Assembly (NCBI GenBank): GCA_021199305.1
Contig: JAJQIH010000020.1
Span: 1 to 49,309 of the forward strand
Origin: Ruminococcus sp.
Lineage (GTDB): Bacteria; Bacillota; Clostridia; Oscillospirales; Ruminococcaceae
Length of the DNA: 49,309 bases
Direction of reading: 5' to 3'
Below the pieces are notes generated by a model, which saw nothing but the letters and a program-made list of their open reading frames with translations, had not been told where the DNA came from and did no database searches. Positions 1 to 49,309 of this stretch are shown one piece after another. The stretch's first letter is position 1. The number at the start of each line of letters is the position of its first letter. The translations under genes were made by a program, and so were the position numbers.

Positions 1-1
1 C

Positions 2-61
2 TTTATCAATCTTGCAATTGTTATTTTTTCAACCCCGGTGATTCTTCACTGGCTTTTTTAA
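2..61 (+). CDS. 3' end of a membrane-protein gene (cut by window edge)
   Basis: An open frame runs in from the left edge and ends at TAA (59-61). The 19 visible residues are almost entirely hydrophobic (NLAIVIFSTPVILHWLF), as expected for the last membrane helix of an integral membrane protein. A perfect hairpin begins 4 bases after the stop, which fits a gene end. Too little is visible to name a family, and a longer open frame without protein-like composition also crosses this stretch. Confidence 0.4.
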   Translation, partial: FINLAIVIFSTPVILHWLF

Positions 62-64
62 TCC

Positions 65-93
65 GCAAAATCCCACAACTCGTGGGATTTTGC
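65..93. terminator. perfect 12-bp hairpin after the left-edge gene
   Basis: GCAAAATCCCAC (65-76) pairs perfectly with GTGGGATTTTGC (82-93) around a 5-base loop. A T-rich run follows only weakly, so it may be a terminator or simply a stable stem at the end of the left-edge gene. Confidence 0.5.
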
Positions 94-167
94 AACCTTT
101 TCAACAATGGCGGTAGCACACACTACTTTCCGCAAACGCTTGCCCCTGACTATTGTAGGGCAGCGGT

Positions 168-209
168 ACGCATTATGCTTCGCCAACCGCTAGGCAGCTT
201 CGCTGCCCC
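168..209 (+). repeat. dispersed repeat, copy 1
   Basis: Copy of a roughly 42-bp element that recurs at 41131, 41419 and (5' part) 41481. It starts with ACGCATTATGCTTCGC and ends in a small hairpin GGCAGC-TTC-GCTGCC. Relative to the other copies the hairpin carries a compensated A-T to G-C pair. The rest of 94-323 shows no gene. Confidence 0.7.
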
Positions 210-323
210 CTGTTATCTCACGAAAATTGAACAATAATGTTAAAATTAGTAAAAATAACAGTAGTACGTAGTAGATTCTAAGTACATAACGACAACAGCA
301 TTTCATCCCCTCTCTATCGAAAT

Positions 324-363
324 AAAACCCCTGCTCTCACTCATAAGTGAGAACAGGGGTTTT
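324..363. terminator. bidirectional terminator after the Cthe_2159-like gene
   Basis: AAAACCCCTG (324-333) pairs with CAGGGGTTTT (354-363), and TCTCAC (335-340) pairs with GTGAGA (347-352), giving a long stem with one mismatch and an A/T-flanked base. It lies 24 bases past the final stop of the minus-strand gene ending at 388. Confidence 0.85.
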
Positions 364-11559: not shown

Positions 11560-13853
11560 TTTCTTTTCCTCCGTTTATTTATTATCATATATGCTGCAAA
11601 TATCACTACTCCGCAGCCGCTTATTACCGCTCCCTGCTTTACTCCAAAGGTAAAGTAGCTGAACTCGATTTCGCTTTCGCCCTCGTTTACAAAAACTGCG
11701 CAAAGTCCGTTGTCGACCTTTATAATCTCAGCTTCATCACCATTGACAGTAGCCGTAAAGCCGTTGTCGAACGGCACGCTGAACAGCACCAATCCGCTGC
11801 TGTCTGCGTTTATTTTTGCGCTGAATCCGTAAGAATCGTATTCAAAATCATAGCAGGCGGTTTCTCTTAGCTGCTCTGCAGTATTTTTAAGATTATATGT
11901 GTTGTAGGTTGCCTGAACGCTTTCAAGCTCCGTCAGGCCGAGAGCTTCAGCATAATCGTCGTCAAGCACAACCGCTTTTGTAAGCATTTTACACTTCTGG
12001 TCTGTTGTAAGATTCTCAAAAACATCGCTTGAAATATATTCGTCAAAGAACAGTCCCATAGAAACGTAGTTTTCATTTTCGTAAATATCAAAGCCGTTTT
12101 GCGTTTCAAGATATTCAAAGCCGTACTCACTGAAGTCATTTGAATCGTCGTCATCAACCTCGTCGAGGTAATACTTTACCGACAAAAGCGTTCTGAGAGA
12201 TGTATACTGCGTATCAATTCTGCTTGCTACATCTCTTGTAAAGCCGAGCGACTGATAGAACTCCATAATTGAGGTTGACACATTAGTATTAAAGCACCGC
12301 ATTGTTGAATATCCCCAGAGCATTGGGAAGTTGTCGGTGTTTTCGCTTGTATCAATTCTATAAAAGGTATCGCTTTCAGGAAGGGTTATATCGGCGTTTA
12401 TCGTGGCGTCGAGATACTTTTCGGGGTCAGGCCCCTGAGAAATTCCGTAGTAAATATTTACCGCCAGAAACAATCCGCAGCTAAGAGCAGTAACTCCCGC
12501 TACCCGCCTTGTATAACGCTCGTCCTTTTTAACAAAGTAAATAAGCAAAATTGCCGTCAGGAACAAAGCCAACGTAACTGCAACCTGAAGGATAAACAAA
12601 GCGTCGTATTCCGCCATATCGAAAAATACAAGCTCGCCGTCCTCGTTCTTTGGCAGGAAATACACAAGCACAAAGACAAGCGTTATAATCCCAGTCGGCA
12701 CTACTCCCTTTTTTATGTCGACCTCGTCGCTTTTGTCAAAGCAATAGGCTGTCATCAGAGCGGTTATAAGCGAAAGCTCAAAAAACCACCTTGCATAGTA
12801 GGTTGTATTAAAAAGCTGAAAGGCTGAATTTAAAATTGGCACCAGAGCGAACACAAAAAGCGTTAAGCAAAGAGTTTTTATAAAGCTCTTTTTCTTGCTT
12901 CGCAAAAAAGCTATTACGCCAATCATTGAAAACAGCGGCAGATAACCCGCAATCGACGCCCAGTTTGCGCTGTCGGCATTAAAAATATTGCTTCTCGCAG
13001 GAGGGTCTGGCATCATAAAGAACGACTGAATAATTCTGAGTATTCTGTACTTGTCGGAGTATACTATATAGTCAAGTCCGGAAAGCGAATTTTCAAGCCG
13101 AGGGTTGTCTATTATCGCCAATGCGCTCGGCAACAGTAAAACCGCCGCCATTAAAATTCCGACAGCACATTCAAATACTATTCCAAAAAACTTCTTTACG
13201 GTTATGTCGAAGCCTTCGCCCTTATAGATACAGCGTATTACGAGATAGATTATGAAAAATACTCCCTCAGAGATAAAGAAATAGTAGTTTGTAAAGGCGG
13301 CCAGCGCCGTTGTAAGCGCTAATACTCCCCTGTTGCCGTCGTTTACATACATTTCAAGCGCTAACAGCAGCAACGGAAAGAATGCGGCAGCATCATGGAA
13401 ATGATAAAAGAAGAAGTTATAGCATTGCGCCGCCGAAAAGGCATAGAGCATACTTCCTATAAAGCAGGAGCTGTTCTTCTTTAAAAATCTGCCCATGAAG
13501 GCATAAGAGGTAAGCGCAGCTACAGCAGTTTTAAGCGCCATTATTACAGGCATTACATAAACCACTGCACCCTGAGGAACCAACAGAGTGAGATAAAAGA
13601 AAATACTTCCCGTATTATAAAACGAATAGGCTGTAAAAAGACTTGAGCCTAAATCGGTTCCCCAGTCAAAGCCGAAAAGACCGTTTTGCCGAATCTGTTC
13701 GTTTACGTGATAATAAAACGGAATTTCCTGAGAATTGTAATCTCCGTAATAGGTAAAAATACCGCCGTTATATATTATCATCGGAAGCATTGCGATAAGC
13801 ATTATAAAAAACGCTGTAAAGAATACAAACGCATAGCTTCTTTTCTTCGTCAC
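11550..13853 (-). CDS. YfhO-family polytopic membrane protein
   Basis: A 767-residue protein with about 13 membrane helices over the first two thirds. It carries the YfhO signature near the N-terminus (YNGGIFTYYGDYNSQEIPFYYHVN) and a C-terminal extracellular beta-rich domain followed by a last helix and KRRKRK tail. In Bacillus and Listeria YfhO proteins act in glycosylation of wall or lipoteichoic polymers as GT-C-fold glycosyltransferases. The best start is GTG 13853, 7 bases after GGAGGTGA, because the upstream ATG (13904) lies within the leader without a ribosome site. Cotranscribed with the NUDIX gene. Function here is by family only. Confidence 0.88.
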   Translation of the reverse strand: MTKKRSYAFVFFTAFFIMLIAMLPMIIYNGGIFTYYGDYNSQEIPFYYHVNEQIRQNGLFGFDWGTDLGSSLFTAYSFYNTGSIFFYLTLLVPQGAVVYVMPVIMALKTAVAALTSYAFMGRFLKKNSSCFIGSMLYAFSAAQCYNFFFYHFHDAAAFFPLLLLALEMYVNDGNRGVLALTTALAAFTNYYFFISEGVFFIIYLVIRCIYKGEGFDITVKKFFGIVFECAVGILMAAVLLLPSALAIIDNPRLENSLSGLDYIVYSDKYRILRIIQSFFMMPDPPARSNIFNADSANWASIAGYLPLFSMIGVIAFLRSKKKSFIKTLCLTLFVFALVPILNSAFQLFNTTYYARWFFELSLITALMTAYCFDKSDEVDIKKGVVPTGIITLVFVLVYFLPKNEDGELVFFDMAEYDALFILQVAVTLALFLTAILLIYFVKKDERYTRRVAGVTALSCGLFLAVNIYYGISQGPDPEKYLDATINADITLPESDTFYRIDTSENTDNFPMLWGYSTMRCFNTNVSTSIMEFYQSLGFTRDVASRIDTQYTSLRTLLSVKYYLDEVDDDDSNDFSEYGFEYLETQNGFDIYENENYVSMGLFFDEYISSDVFENLTTDQKCKMLTKAVVLDDDYAEALGLTELESVQATYNTYNLKNTAEQLRETACYDFEYDSYGFSAKINADSSGLVLFSVPFDNGFTATVNGDEAEIIKVDNGLCAVFVNEGESEIEFSYFTFGVKQGAVISGCGVVIFAAYMIINKRRKRKCI

Positions 13854-13890
13854 TTCTATCTCACCTCCGCTGATTTTCGTTTCAATATAT

Positions 13891-13920
13891 AGTATACTAC
13901 ACAAAAAGCGAGTTAGTCAA
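13891..13920 (-). promoter_or_regulatory. YfhO promoter
   Basis: Minus strand TTGACT (13915-13920), 18-base spacer, TATACT (13891-13896). It is back to back with the yjbQ promoter; the two -35 boxes are 2 bases apart. Confidence 0.8.
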
Positions 13921-13922
13921 TA

Positions 13923-13951
13923 TTGAAAAAGTGTGAAGTTTATGCTATACT
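13923..13951 (+). promoter_or_regulatory. YjbQ-YdcF promoter
   Basis: TTGAAA (13923-13928), 17-base spacer, TATACT (13946-13951). Confidence 0.8.
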
Positions 13952-13990
13952 TGTATTACAACAAAATTTTCAGATTTCGGGAGGCATATT

Positions 13991-14386
13991 ATGGTATACG
14001 AATACACGCTTAAAACTCAGAAGCAAAACTTTTACAACATTACGTCTTTTGTTAAAAATGCCGTCAAGCAAAGCGGAATTATAAACGGTATTGCGGTAGT
14101 TTACTGCCCTCACACAACGGCAGGAATTACAATTAACGAAAATGCAGACCCTGACGTTGTCACAGACCTTTTGTATGCGCTTGACGTTACATACCCGGAC
14201 CGCCCGGAATTTCGTCACGCCGAAGGAAATACAACCGCTCACATCAAGTCGTCTGTAATGGGCGCTTCTCAGACGGTTATAATCGACAACGGCAGACTTC
14301 TTCTCGGCACGTGGCAGGGAATTTATTTTACTGAATTTGACGGACCGAGAATCAGGAAATACTACGTTAAGGTAATCGAAGGATAA
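13991..14386 (+). CDS. YjbQ/UPF0047 family protein
   Basis: A 131-residue protein of the UPF0047 family. The motifs VVYCPHTTAGITINENADPDV (split about residues 37-57) and the conserved H in RHAEGNTTAHIKSSVMG are both present, and GTWQGIYFTEFDGPR near the end is diagnostic. Family members have a low thiamine-phosphate synthase activity in E. coli, but the real role is unknown. GGGAGG precedes ATG 13991. The stop TAA overlaps the next start (TAATG), so the pair is coupled. Confidence 0.93.
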   Translation: MVYEYTLKTQKQNFYNITSFVKNAVKQSGIINGIAVVYCPHTTAGITINENADPDVVTDLLYALDVTYPDRPEFRHAEGNTTAHIKSSVMGASQTVIIDNGRLLLGTWQGIYFTEFDGPRIRKYYVKVIEG

Positions 14387-15147
14387 TGATTTCAGTAAAG
14401 CTCATTTTACTTTGTGTTGAAGTCTTTTTGCTTGTTCTGTTTTTATTTCCGATTATTCTGGACGTTTTAAACTTCGGAAATATTGCAGGCGGCATAGCTT
14501 GCGCTATAATGCTCATAGTAACTATTTTTGACAAGCAGTTTTTCTCACTTGTCACTTTTCTCTGGCAATCGCCGCCCGGCAGAGTGCTTGTTATTTTTGT
14601 AGGTGCTATAATAGCGGTTGGCGTTGTGCTGGCAGTTGTTTTATCGGCTTTGATGATAAAAGCGCAACACAATAAGAGTGCGGGCGATACAACCGTTATA
14701 GTTTTAGGCTGTAAGGTAAAGGGTAAACGCCCTAGCAGAATGCTTCGCTACAGACTTGACAAGGCTTATGAATATCTGTGTGAAAATGAAGATGCTGTTT
14801 GCATAGTTTCAGGCGGACAGGGTAACGACGAGCTTATTTCAGAAGCTGAATGTATGTATGGTTATCTCGTTGGCAAAGGAATTGAAAGCAAACGAATTAT
14901 CAAAGAGGACAAGGCTACCAGCACAGAAGAAAATCTAAAGCTTTCAAAAAAGATAATAGATGAAAGGTCGCTGACGACAAGCGTTTCGATAGTCACCGAC
15001 GGATTTCACCAGTACAGAGCTTCATATATTGCCAAAAAGTGCGGCTACAAGCGGGTTTACGCTCTTTGCGCTTATACAAAGTGGCAGTATATCCCCTCCT
15101 ACTGGGTCAGAGAGTGGGCAGCGATTTTAAACGAATGGTTAAAATAA
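14386..15147 (+). CDS. YdcF/SanA-type DUF218 membrane protein
   Basis: A 253-residue protein. Four hydrophobic helices (residues about 1-95) precede the DUF218 domain, with TVIVLGCKVKGKRPSRMLRYRLDKA (split at about 101-125), VSGGQG, and the TEENLKLSKKII/VTDGFHQYRA segments. Family members such as SanA and ElyC act in envelope integrity or peptidoglycan precursor supply in other bacteria, without an assigned reaction. Translation is coupled to YjbQ by TAATG. A terminator follows directly. Confidence 0.9.
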   Translation: MISVKLILLCVEVFLLVLFLFPIILDVLNFGNIAGGIACAIMLIVTIFDKQFFSLVTFLWQSPPGRVLVIFVGAIIAVGVVLAVVLSALMIKAQHNKSAGDTTVIVLGCKVKGKRPSRMLRYRLDKAYEYLCENEDAVCIVSGGQGNDELISEAECMYGYLVGKGIESKRIIKEDKATSTEENLKLSKKIIDERSLTTSVSIVTDGFHQYRASYIAKKCGYKRVYALCAYTKWQYIPSYWVREWAAILNEWLK

Positions 15148-48672: not shown

Positions 48673-48700
48673 TTGAAATCCCTCCATATCCTGCTAAAAT
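48673..48700 (+). promoter_or_regulatory. promoter of the stand-alone Spo0A-C gene
   Basis: TTGAAA (48673-48678), 16-base spacer, TAAAAT (48695-48700). Confidence 0.6.
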
Positions 48701-48742
48701 AAAATCAAGAAGTAAAAATTATTACCCGAAAGGAGCTCCATT

Positions 48743-49129
48743 ATGCCCCACCACGACGTTTCAGGCCTGAAAAACATAACCACCAACCTCATCCTTCAGC
48801 TTGGCATTCCTGCAAATCTGAAAGGCTATCATTACATTCGTGAGGCTGTTGTGATGAGTGTTTGCGAACCAGAAATGATTGATAATATCTCTGGTAAAAT
48901 CTACGCGGCGATTGCGCAAAATCACGGAGTAACGCCAGCTTGCGTTGAAAGGGCGATTGCGACCGCAATTAAAACCTCTTACAAGCGAGGATGCAAAGAA
49001 ACCTTTGCTGATATTTTTGGCGAAGAGACGGCATCTGAAATTAAGCGGGGCAAAAAGACGATTGCGAATAAGGAATATATTGTTGGGTTGACGGGAGCCG
49101 TAAGAAAAGAGTATGAAATGGAGCAATGA
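48743..49129 (+). CDS. stand-alone Spo0A C-terminal DNA-binding domain protein
   Basis: A 128-residue protein that is only the effector domain of Spo0A. The signatures are LGIPANLKGYHYIREAV (about 26-42), the recognition region GVTPACVERAIATAIKTSY (about 70-88) and a DIFG where Spo0A has SLFG. No receiver domain precedes it, and the start is firm (GAAAGGAGC before ATG 48743), so this is not a truncation by wrong start. Free of phosphorylation control, it could bind 0A boxes constitutively, compete with Spo0A, or dimerise with it. It stands 147 bases upstream of spo0A itself in the same direction. Confidence 0.88.
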   Translation: MPHHDVSGLKNITTNLILQLGIPANLKGYHYIREAVVMSVCEPEMIDNISGKIYAAIAQNHGVTPACVERAIATAIKTSYKRGCKETFADIFGEETASEIKRGKKTIANKEYIVGLTGAVRKEYEMEQ

Positions 49130-49179
49130 GGTATTATGAGCAATTATAAATCGCAAACTTTTTATCTCAACCCCCACAA

Positions 49180-49201
49180 TTCGACAAAAAATTCTGTCAA
49201 T
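49180..49201. promoter_or_regulatory. 0A-like boxes upstream of spo0A
   Basis: TTCGACAAA (49180-49188) is the exact reverse complement of the 0A consensus TTTGTCRAA. TCTGTCAAT (49193-49201) matches 7 of 9 on the other strand. They sit just before a possible spo0A promoter (TGTCAA, 17 bases, TTAAAT), fitting autoregulation. Confidence 0.65.
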
Positions 49202-49227
49202 ATATGGTAAAATATCATTAAATAAAT

Positions 49228-49250
49228 AACCCTTGCCGATAGCGAGGGTT
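49228..49250 (+). promoter_or_regulatory. hairpin in the spo0A leader
   Basis: AACCCTTGC pairs with GCGAGGGTT (one wobble) around CGATA, 26 bases before the start codon. With no T-run it is a leader structure rather than a terminator. Confidence 0.5.
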
Positions 49251-49276
49251 AAAATATTGACGAAAGGAATGGTTTT

Positions 49277-49309
49277 ATGAGCCAGAAAATTAAGGTTTTA
49301 ATTGGTGAC
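49277..49309 (+). CDS. spo0A: response regulator start, probably spo0A (cut by window edge)
   Basis: Eleven codons are visible: MSQKIKVLIGD, matching the first receiver strand of Spo0A (MS.KIKV.I.DDN). GAAAGGA precedes ATG 49277. The upstream 0A-like boxes and the neighbouring Spo0A-C gene support spo0A, but any CheY-like receiver would start similarly. Confidence 0.65.
   Translation, partial: MSQKIKVLIGD

What the first reader, a model, noticed from the sequence alone, without database searches (positions are those of the whole stretch)
48743..49309. Receiver-less Spo0A DNA-binding domain encoded directly upstream of spo0A
A complete gene with its own ribosome site encodes only the Spo0A effector domain, and the next gene starts like full-length Spo0A behind an exact 0A box (49180-49188) and a 7/9 second box. 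A phosphorylation-independent Spo0A paralog next to spo0A could act as a constitutive activator, a competitor, or a brake on sporulation entry. Family facts: Spo0A needs aspartate phosphorylation to dimerise on 0A boxes. Inference: the paralog bypasses or titrates this.
Basis: partly seen in the sequence, partly recalled or inferred. Interest (0 to 1): 0.8.

Follow-up and report, generated by a model that had tools for sequence, protein, structure and literature searches.

The report
Receiver-less Spo0A paralog beside spo0A
A gut Ruminococcus carries, just upstream of one of its several copies of the sporulation master-switch gene spo0A, an intact and conserved gene for only the DNA-binding half of that switch, which could influence when the cell commits to making spores without waiting for the usual phosphate signal.

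Summary
Window 48743-49129 encodes a 128-aa protein that is Spo0A_C only (Pfam 87.8 bits; model 1.3 A from the Spo0A-DNA crystal structure). The next gene is real spo0A: the window is a whole contig whose last 55 bases equal the end of contig C6, which holds a receiver-plus-effector Spo0A. It is one corner of something larger: this genome has nine Spo0A_C matches, the most among the 297 family genomes. They are three receiver-bearing spo0A genes (one cut by a contig end), two receiver-less genes and fragments. The 128-aa gene has an ortholog in one sister species (77% identity; dN/dS 0.19, interval 0.11-0.31), so it is probably a working gene. Its recognition helix keeps E213 and R214 but has R211C, R217A and H218T; R217 is present in 100 of 100 receiver-bearing domains, so plain 0A-box binding is doubtful. 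The kind is not new: short receiver-less ORFs occur in 14 of 20 multi-copy genomes examined, and truncated phage copies are published (PMC10294663). Best reading: a phosphorylation-blind, altered-specificity Spo0A modulator born in a lineage-specific spo0A expansion. The direction of its effect is untested.

The parts
48743..49129 (+). Receiver-less Spo0A gene, 128 aa (Spo0A_C only), stop included
   Evidence: fold; ortholog and dN/dS
48743..48850 (+). Codons 1-36: head shared with the other MPHHD-type receiver-less genes (0.61-0.81 nt identity per 12-codon bin)
48851..49126 (+). Codons 37-128: diverged part with the recognition helix and C-terminal helices (0.28-0.60 nt identity per bin to the other MPHHD genes and to the C33 spo0A)
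48673..48700 (+). Sigma-A-like promoter TTGAAA-16-TAAAAT (TG before second hexamer) of the 128-aa gene; none of the 0A-like heptamers searched for within 250 bp upstream of the start codon
   Evidence: a consensus match only
48730..48735 (+). Ribosome-binding site AAGGAG of the 128-aa gene
49180..49188 (-). Exact 0A box TTTGTCGAA in the spo0A promoter
   Evidence: present in the four aligned spo0A promoters of G000/G001
49193..49201 (+). Second 0A-box-like site, 7 of 9
49227..49251 (+). Predicted stem-loop between spo0A promoter and its ribosome site
   Evidence: 83-nt stretch z -3.97; a similar stem in 2 further spo0A leaders, stretch z -3.86 and -1.85; this segment is missing from the G001 C6 leader
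49264..49268 (+). Ribosome-binding site AAGGA of spo0A
49277..49309 (+). First 11 codons of full-length spo0A, continuing on contig C6
49255..49309 (.). 55-base terminal overlap with the end of contig C6
47155..48648 (+). GH43 glycoside hydrolase gene upstream (context); bases like its last 17 stand before the leader of the C32 receiver-less gene too

Best explanation
The gene encodes a stand-alone Spo0A effector domain that arose inside a spo0A expansion seen in two Ruminococcus species and has been kept by selection. It is transcribed from its own sigma-A-type promoter, in which no 0A box was found, so its level should not follow Spo0A~P. Having no receiver, it should be available to bind DNA at all times. 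It keeps the core of the reading helix (E213, R214) but has lost R211, R217 and H218, so it most likely binds a changed or weaker version of the 0A box. It would act as a phosphorylation-blind modulator at a subset of Spo0A-type promoters, possibly including the 0A-box promoter of the neighbouring spo0A. Shown here: architecture, intact ORF, ortholog, purifying selection, predicted fold, helix substitutions. Inferred: promoter use, DNA binding, changed specificity, targets. Unknown: whether the net effect delays or eases sporulation.
Against: No binding or expression data. The helix changes could equally abolish DNA binding. The gene pair is not conserved. Only two sequences of this subfamily were found (396 family genomes). 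Which recognition-helix residues touch bases is recalled from the crystal-structure literature, not read here.
Confidence: 0.45

Rival explanations
1. Plain competitor or brake: the protein occupies 0A boxes, including the one before spo0A, without activating, and so raises the Spo0A~P level needed for sporulation.
For: Isolated DBD binds 0A boxes without phosphate (PMC3485338 passages); exact 0A box in the adjacent spo0A promoter overlapping a -35-like hexamer; predicted fold intact.
Against: R211C, R217A and H218T in the reading helix make ordinary 0A-box affinity doubtful; nothing is known of how much protein is made.
Confidence: 0.25
2. Constitutive activator of the Spo0A regulon that bypasses phosphorylation.
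For: Receiver-less architecture with an own sigma-A-like promoter.
Against: Changed reading helix and a diverged C-terminal part; an always-on activator beside three spo0A genes would be expected to override the switch (inference).
Confidence: 0.08
3. Duplication debris: one of several spo0A pieces scattered in this genome, not yet decayed.
For: Fragments on C10, C32 and C33 and a frameshifted 113-aa type show that copies do decay here; mosaic structure.
Against: dN/dS 0.11-0.31 and an open frame in both species after dS about 0.7; promoter-like site and ribosome site intact.
Confidence: 0.12
4. Phage-derived anti-dormancy gene, like the truncated spo0A genes reported from gut phages.
For: Such truncated genes are published (PMC10294663, parts 1-2 of 3 read); two PHROG families match; a related fragment in the sister genome lies beside phage head genes.
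Against: One viral-contig scan, with the G001 ortholog as query, confirmed no relative (such a scan finds close relatives only). 13 phage records match the window protein at 31-43% identity; of the 6 inspected, 5 hold receiver-bearing spo0A and the sixth sits by genes that look like a V-type ATPase (by eye), so they look bacterial. The other MPHHD genes group with the host's own spo0A (95*).
Confidence: 0.06

Closest known systems
Spo0A (full-length sporulation response regulator; effector domain 1LQ1/1FC3)
   Different: No receiver, R211C/R217A/H218T, own promoter-like site without a 0A box found, not next to spoIVB
Truncated spo0A homologs of gut phages (Schwartz et al. 2023, PMC10294663; parts 1 and 2 of 3 read)
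   Same: Effector domain without receiver
   Different: Here on a bacterial contig beside spo0A and a GH43 gene; the one viral-contig scan confirmed no relative
   Same: Spo0A_C alone, short ORFs, relaxed positions 211 and 218
   Different: The window gene groups only with its ortholog in the tree, lies next to spo0A, and has lost R217
ChxR, a response regulator that works without phosphorylation (PMC3960148; start of abstract in a search listing only)
   Same: Phosphorylation-independent action
   Different: ChxR has a receiver domain; here there is none

Membership tests
Spo0A_C domain family (PF08769) | Match above the curated cut-off | tested here: met
   87.8 bits against 25, residues 14-114
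Spo0A_C domain family (PF08769) | Spo0A effector fold | tested here: met
Spo0A proper (full-length) | N-terminal receiver with phospho-acceptor Asp | tested here: not met
   128 aa, no Response_reg match; the downstream gene has it
Spo0A proper (full-length) | Recognition helix as in Spo0A (R211, E213, R214, R217, H218) | tested here: not met
   E213 and R214 kept, the other three changed
Spo0A proper (full-length) | Position next to spoIVB, as in the six other primary genus loci inspected | tested here: not met
   no spo0A beside spoIVB in G000 or G001 (in G000 spoIVB lies 1.2 kb from a contig end); adjacent in 6 of 6 other loci
Spo0A proper (full-length) | Binds 0A boxes and controls sporulation genes | not testable with these tools
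   needs a binding assay
Phage-carried truncated spo0A | Effector domain without receiver | tested here: met
Phage-carried truncated spo0A | Encoded on a phage | tested here: inconclusive
   one viral-contig scan with the ortholog confirmed no relative; neighbours are GH43, feoA/feoB-like genes (by eye) and spo0A; the sister genome has phage head genes near a related fragment

The most novel reading that the evidence does not exclude
Ruminococcus-type gut bacteria run a second, phosphorylation-blind Spo0A layer: many genomes carry one to several stand-alone Spo0A effector domains whose reading helix keeps E213/R214/R217 but relaxes 211 and 218. In this species pair the layer lies beside spo0A, exchanges sequence with it by copying and conversion, and sets the sporulation threshold independently of the phosphorelay.
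Probability: 0.3. Interest if true: 0.75.

Novelty: new variant of a known kind. Interest (0 to 1): 0.5.

Why it matters
Spo0A is usually treated as one gene per genome whose output is set by phosphate flow (general knowledge). A conserved effector-only paralog encoded beside it, and a class of such proteins in gut Clostridia, would mean that sporulation thresholds can be set without the phosphorelay. It would also mean that a bare Spo0A_C hit used to call a genome spore-forming can mislead. One survey (PMC6136694, passages only) defined Spo0A by searching for response regulators with this domain; receiver-less copies fall outside such a rule.

Tried and rejected
Phage origin of the window gene: one viral-contig scan, query the G001 ortholog, matched 6 stretches and confirmed none; 13 phage records matched the window protein, but of the 6 inspected 5 hold receiver-bearing spo0A and the sixth looks bacterial by eye. 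The other 7 were not inspected.

Plain recent copy of the local spo0A: rejected for codons 37-128 (0.39-0.56 nt identity per bin to the C33 spo0A). The other MPHHD genes group with the host spo0A (tree).

Naming relatives of the 128-aa protein in named genomes: 56 pattern matches, none confirmed; a second scan with the C6 spo0A named the sister record as a Ruminococcus MAG.

0A box as evidence by count alone: the heptamer is not enriched. The 9-mer TTTGTCRAA is (9 against 2.2 expected), but six of nine read TTTGTCAAA, and whether they lie in coding sequence was not checked, so this was not used. An exact 0A 9-mer within 200 bp upstream of spo0A is uncommon in general (6 of 78 named loci; control 3 of 292 windows), so the box here is a lineage trait and not a family rule.

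Structure of the tandem Spo0A_C protein from G268: given no alignment, model poor (pLDDT 40), not used.

Contact residues of the Spo0A-DNA complex: three searches and passages of two papers did not name them; that E213/R214/R217 form the core is recalled. The per-position query column printed empty because of a naming slip; the query residues were read from the alignments.

Limits: the 50 domains called receiver-less are those without a match to my own receiver model. They include two not proven receiver-less (L105, no start codon in frame; L114, frame open at a contig edge), one more at a contig edge (L199), near-identical copies from G268 and G289, and about ten with roughly 100 or more residues upstream. 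Domains starting after profile position 20 or ending before 85, and exact duplicates, were dropped. The 20 genomes were chosen for high match counts, so they do not measure how common the class is; short receiver-less ORFs (under 180 codons, not at a contig start) were seen in 14 of those 20, G001 among them, and not all weak matches were fetched.

Limits: the 53 matches were picked by me and leave out weaker ones; at least three belong to receiver-bearing frames by my model (L158, L185, L186).

Full report

THE NEIGHBOUR IS SPO0A. The contig ends 11 codons into the next gene. Its last 55 bases occur at exactly one other place in the genome, the end of contig C6. Such an overlap is what a de Bruijn assembly leaves between neighbouring contigs (the k=55 reading is inference). 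C6 continues with a frame holding Response_reg and Spo0A_C. The 147-bp gap between the two genes holds an exact 0A box, a 7-of-9 second box in the opposite direction, a -35/-10-like pair overlapping the exact box and a predicted stem-loop before the ribosome site. The box block is shared by the four spo0A promoters of this species and its sister that could be aligned; the C40 copy has no promoter in the assembly.

A SPO0A EXPANSION. The genome has nine Spo0A_C matches, the highest count among the 297 family genomes (278 of 297 have at least one). They are spo0A on C6 and C33; a third on C40 cut by the contig end; receiver-less genes on C3 (this one) and C32; and fragments on C10, C32 and C33 (two matches). 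Among 14 genus genomes, only this one and G001 have receiver-less forms; the other twelve have one or two matches in frames of 253 codons or more. G001, whose contig lengths equal those of Ruminococcus sp. isolate AH.5_1 (a MAG), has two full-length genes, receiver-less genes of 130, 113 and 120 aa and one fragment. In six other primary genus loci inspected spo0A follows spoIVB. In G000 and G001 spoIVB has no spo0A beside it, though in G000 it lies 1.2 kb from a contig end. So spo0A seems to have left its usual place in this lineage.

HOW THE GENES ARE RELATED. The 130-aa gene of G001 is the ortholog (77% identity). It lies about 1 kb downstream of a spo0A copy and points towards it, not upstream of it. 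The window gene is mosaic: codons 1-36 share 0.61-0.81 of bases per 12-codon bin with the other MPHHD genes, codons 37-128 only 0.28-0.60. In the tree (quick method, few columns, 43 of 83 inner branches open) it groups only with its ortholog (98*), while the other MPHHD genes group with the host spo0A genes (95*). The C32 gene has the leader of the C3 gene at 88% identity together with bases like the last 17 of the GH43 gene upstream of it; the simplest reading is that this copy came from C3 (inference). Upstream of the C33 spo0A lies a leader like that of the G001 receiver-less genes, with no receiver-less ORF between.

IS IT ALIVE. Between the two species dN/dS is 0.19 (bootstrap 0.11-0.31) at dS 0.69 (0.47-1.04), with no stop in either. 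Full-length spo0A pairs have about 0.03-0.05. So it is constrained, though less than spo0A. The frameshifted 113-aa type has a similar ratio (0.14, interval 0.07-0.28), so a low ratio does not by itself prove a full working domain. An oddity: 24 other gene pairs in the fetched stretches have median dS 0.30, maximum 0.574, while spo0A pairs between the species have 0.88-1.24, even at the syntenic locus C40/G001-C6. The two G001 spo0A genes are near-alike (dS 0.115). Within-genome conversion, exchange with other lineages, or loss of different old copies would explain this; I could not tell which. As controls, in four comparisons of other genus members spo0A dS is high but within the range of its neighbours.

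DNA READING. By alignment to 1LQ1 (numbering counted from residue 148, inference) the helix S210-R211-V212-E213-R214-A215-I216-R217-H218 reads A-C-V-E-R-A-I-A-T here. Across 100 distinct receiver-bearing domains R211/E213/R214/R217/H218 occur in 96/100/99/100/96; across 50 domains without a receiver match in 14/43/43/41/12 (caveats under Tried and rejected). That class relaxes 211 and 218; the window protein and its ortholog also lose R217. That E213, R214 and R217 are key contacts is recalled. Fold and core are kept, but consensus 0A-box recognition should not be assumed.

CONTROL LOGIC. None of 5 receiver-less genes in the two species has one of the searched 0A-like heptamers within 250 bp upstream, and 4 of 4 spo0A promoters checked do. 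The three G001 receiver-less genes share a leader with TTGACA (two) or CTGACA (one) at the -35-like place (by eye). So the receiver-less protein is probably made independently of Spo0A~P, while spo0A is probably autoregulated. The isolated domain binds 0A boxes without phosphorylation, and the C. difficile spo0A promoter is a strong target (PMC3485338, passages only).

HOW NEW. Receiver-less Spo0A is a known shape: Schwartz et al. 2023 report it in gut phages (PMC10294663, parts 1-2 of 3 read), and short receiver-less ORFs occur in 14 of 20 multi-copy family genomes examined, beside the window's own. Eight library searches listed, by title and start of abstract, no study of chromosomal receiver-less Spo0A genes; the library lacks most subscription journals. 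Pairing with spo0A looks unusual: of 53 further Spo0A_C matches that I picked, 2 lie within 5 kb of a full-length gene, both in G001. Distance could be judged for only 13 of the 53, and at least three belong to receiver-bearing frames.

VERDICT. Ordinary parts: receiver-less Spo0A_C genes exist widely. Unusual parts: the spo0A amplification, the pairing, the diverged reading helix under selection. Specialists should find it moderately surprising and directly testable.

Noticed in passing
L155:40-813 (+) and 13708-14481 (-), genome G268 contig C45: A 258-aa protein made of two Spo0A_C domains in tandem, no receiver match (Pfam 185 bits, 2 stretches; a near-identical second copy at the other end of the same contig): a possible covalent mimic of the Spo0A dimer.
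   Followed up: partly
L010:9450-9998 and L040:7342-8097; L011, L012, L039 spo0A genes: Synonymous divergence of spo0A between the two species (dS 0.88-1.24) is about three to four times that of 24 other gene pairs (median 0.30), even at a syntenic locus.
   Followed up: partly
L013:8793-9131 and L039:8195-8533: The 113-aa receiver-less type ends alike in both species, with the rest of the domain in another frame, yet dN/dS is about 0.14.
   Followed up: no
L012:6815-6902 (contig C33): Leader like that of a receiver-less gene, without its ORF, just upstream of the C33 spo0A promoter.
   Followed up: partly
window 1-324 against L041:3657-4107: In the sister a 120-aa receiver-less gene follows a guaA-like gene (by eye); synteny with the window begins at window 324, just past that gene, and one search finds no Spo0A_C match there, so this copy is present in one species and absent from this contig in the other.
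   Followed up: partly
L042:6658-9153: A Spo0A_C fragment at the end of a membrane-protein-like ORF (by eye) lies against phage head maturation protease and head morphogenesis genes.
   Followed up: no
L156, L157, L160, L165 (genome G289): Four near-identical receiver-less Spo0A genes on four contigs, suggesting a mobile or duplicated unit.
   Followed up: no
window, 9 sites (8068 to 49188): TTTGTCRAA is enriched in the window: 9 against 2.2 expected, 0 of 100 shuffles reach it; six are TTTGTCAAA.
   Followed up: no
L119-L124 (MT835504, MT835715, MT835737, MT835718, MT835781, MT835743): Records filed as phages carry receiver-bearing spo0A (5 of 6 inspected) or lie by V-ATPase-like genes (by eye), so they may be bacterial fragments.
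   Followed up: partly
L011:2-6473 (contig C6): CRISPR-Cas genes resembling type I-C and a repeat array some 3-9 kb beyond the spo0A copy on C6 (by eye).
   Followed up: no
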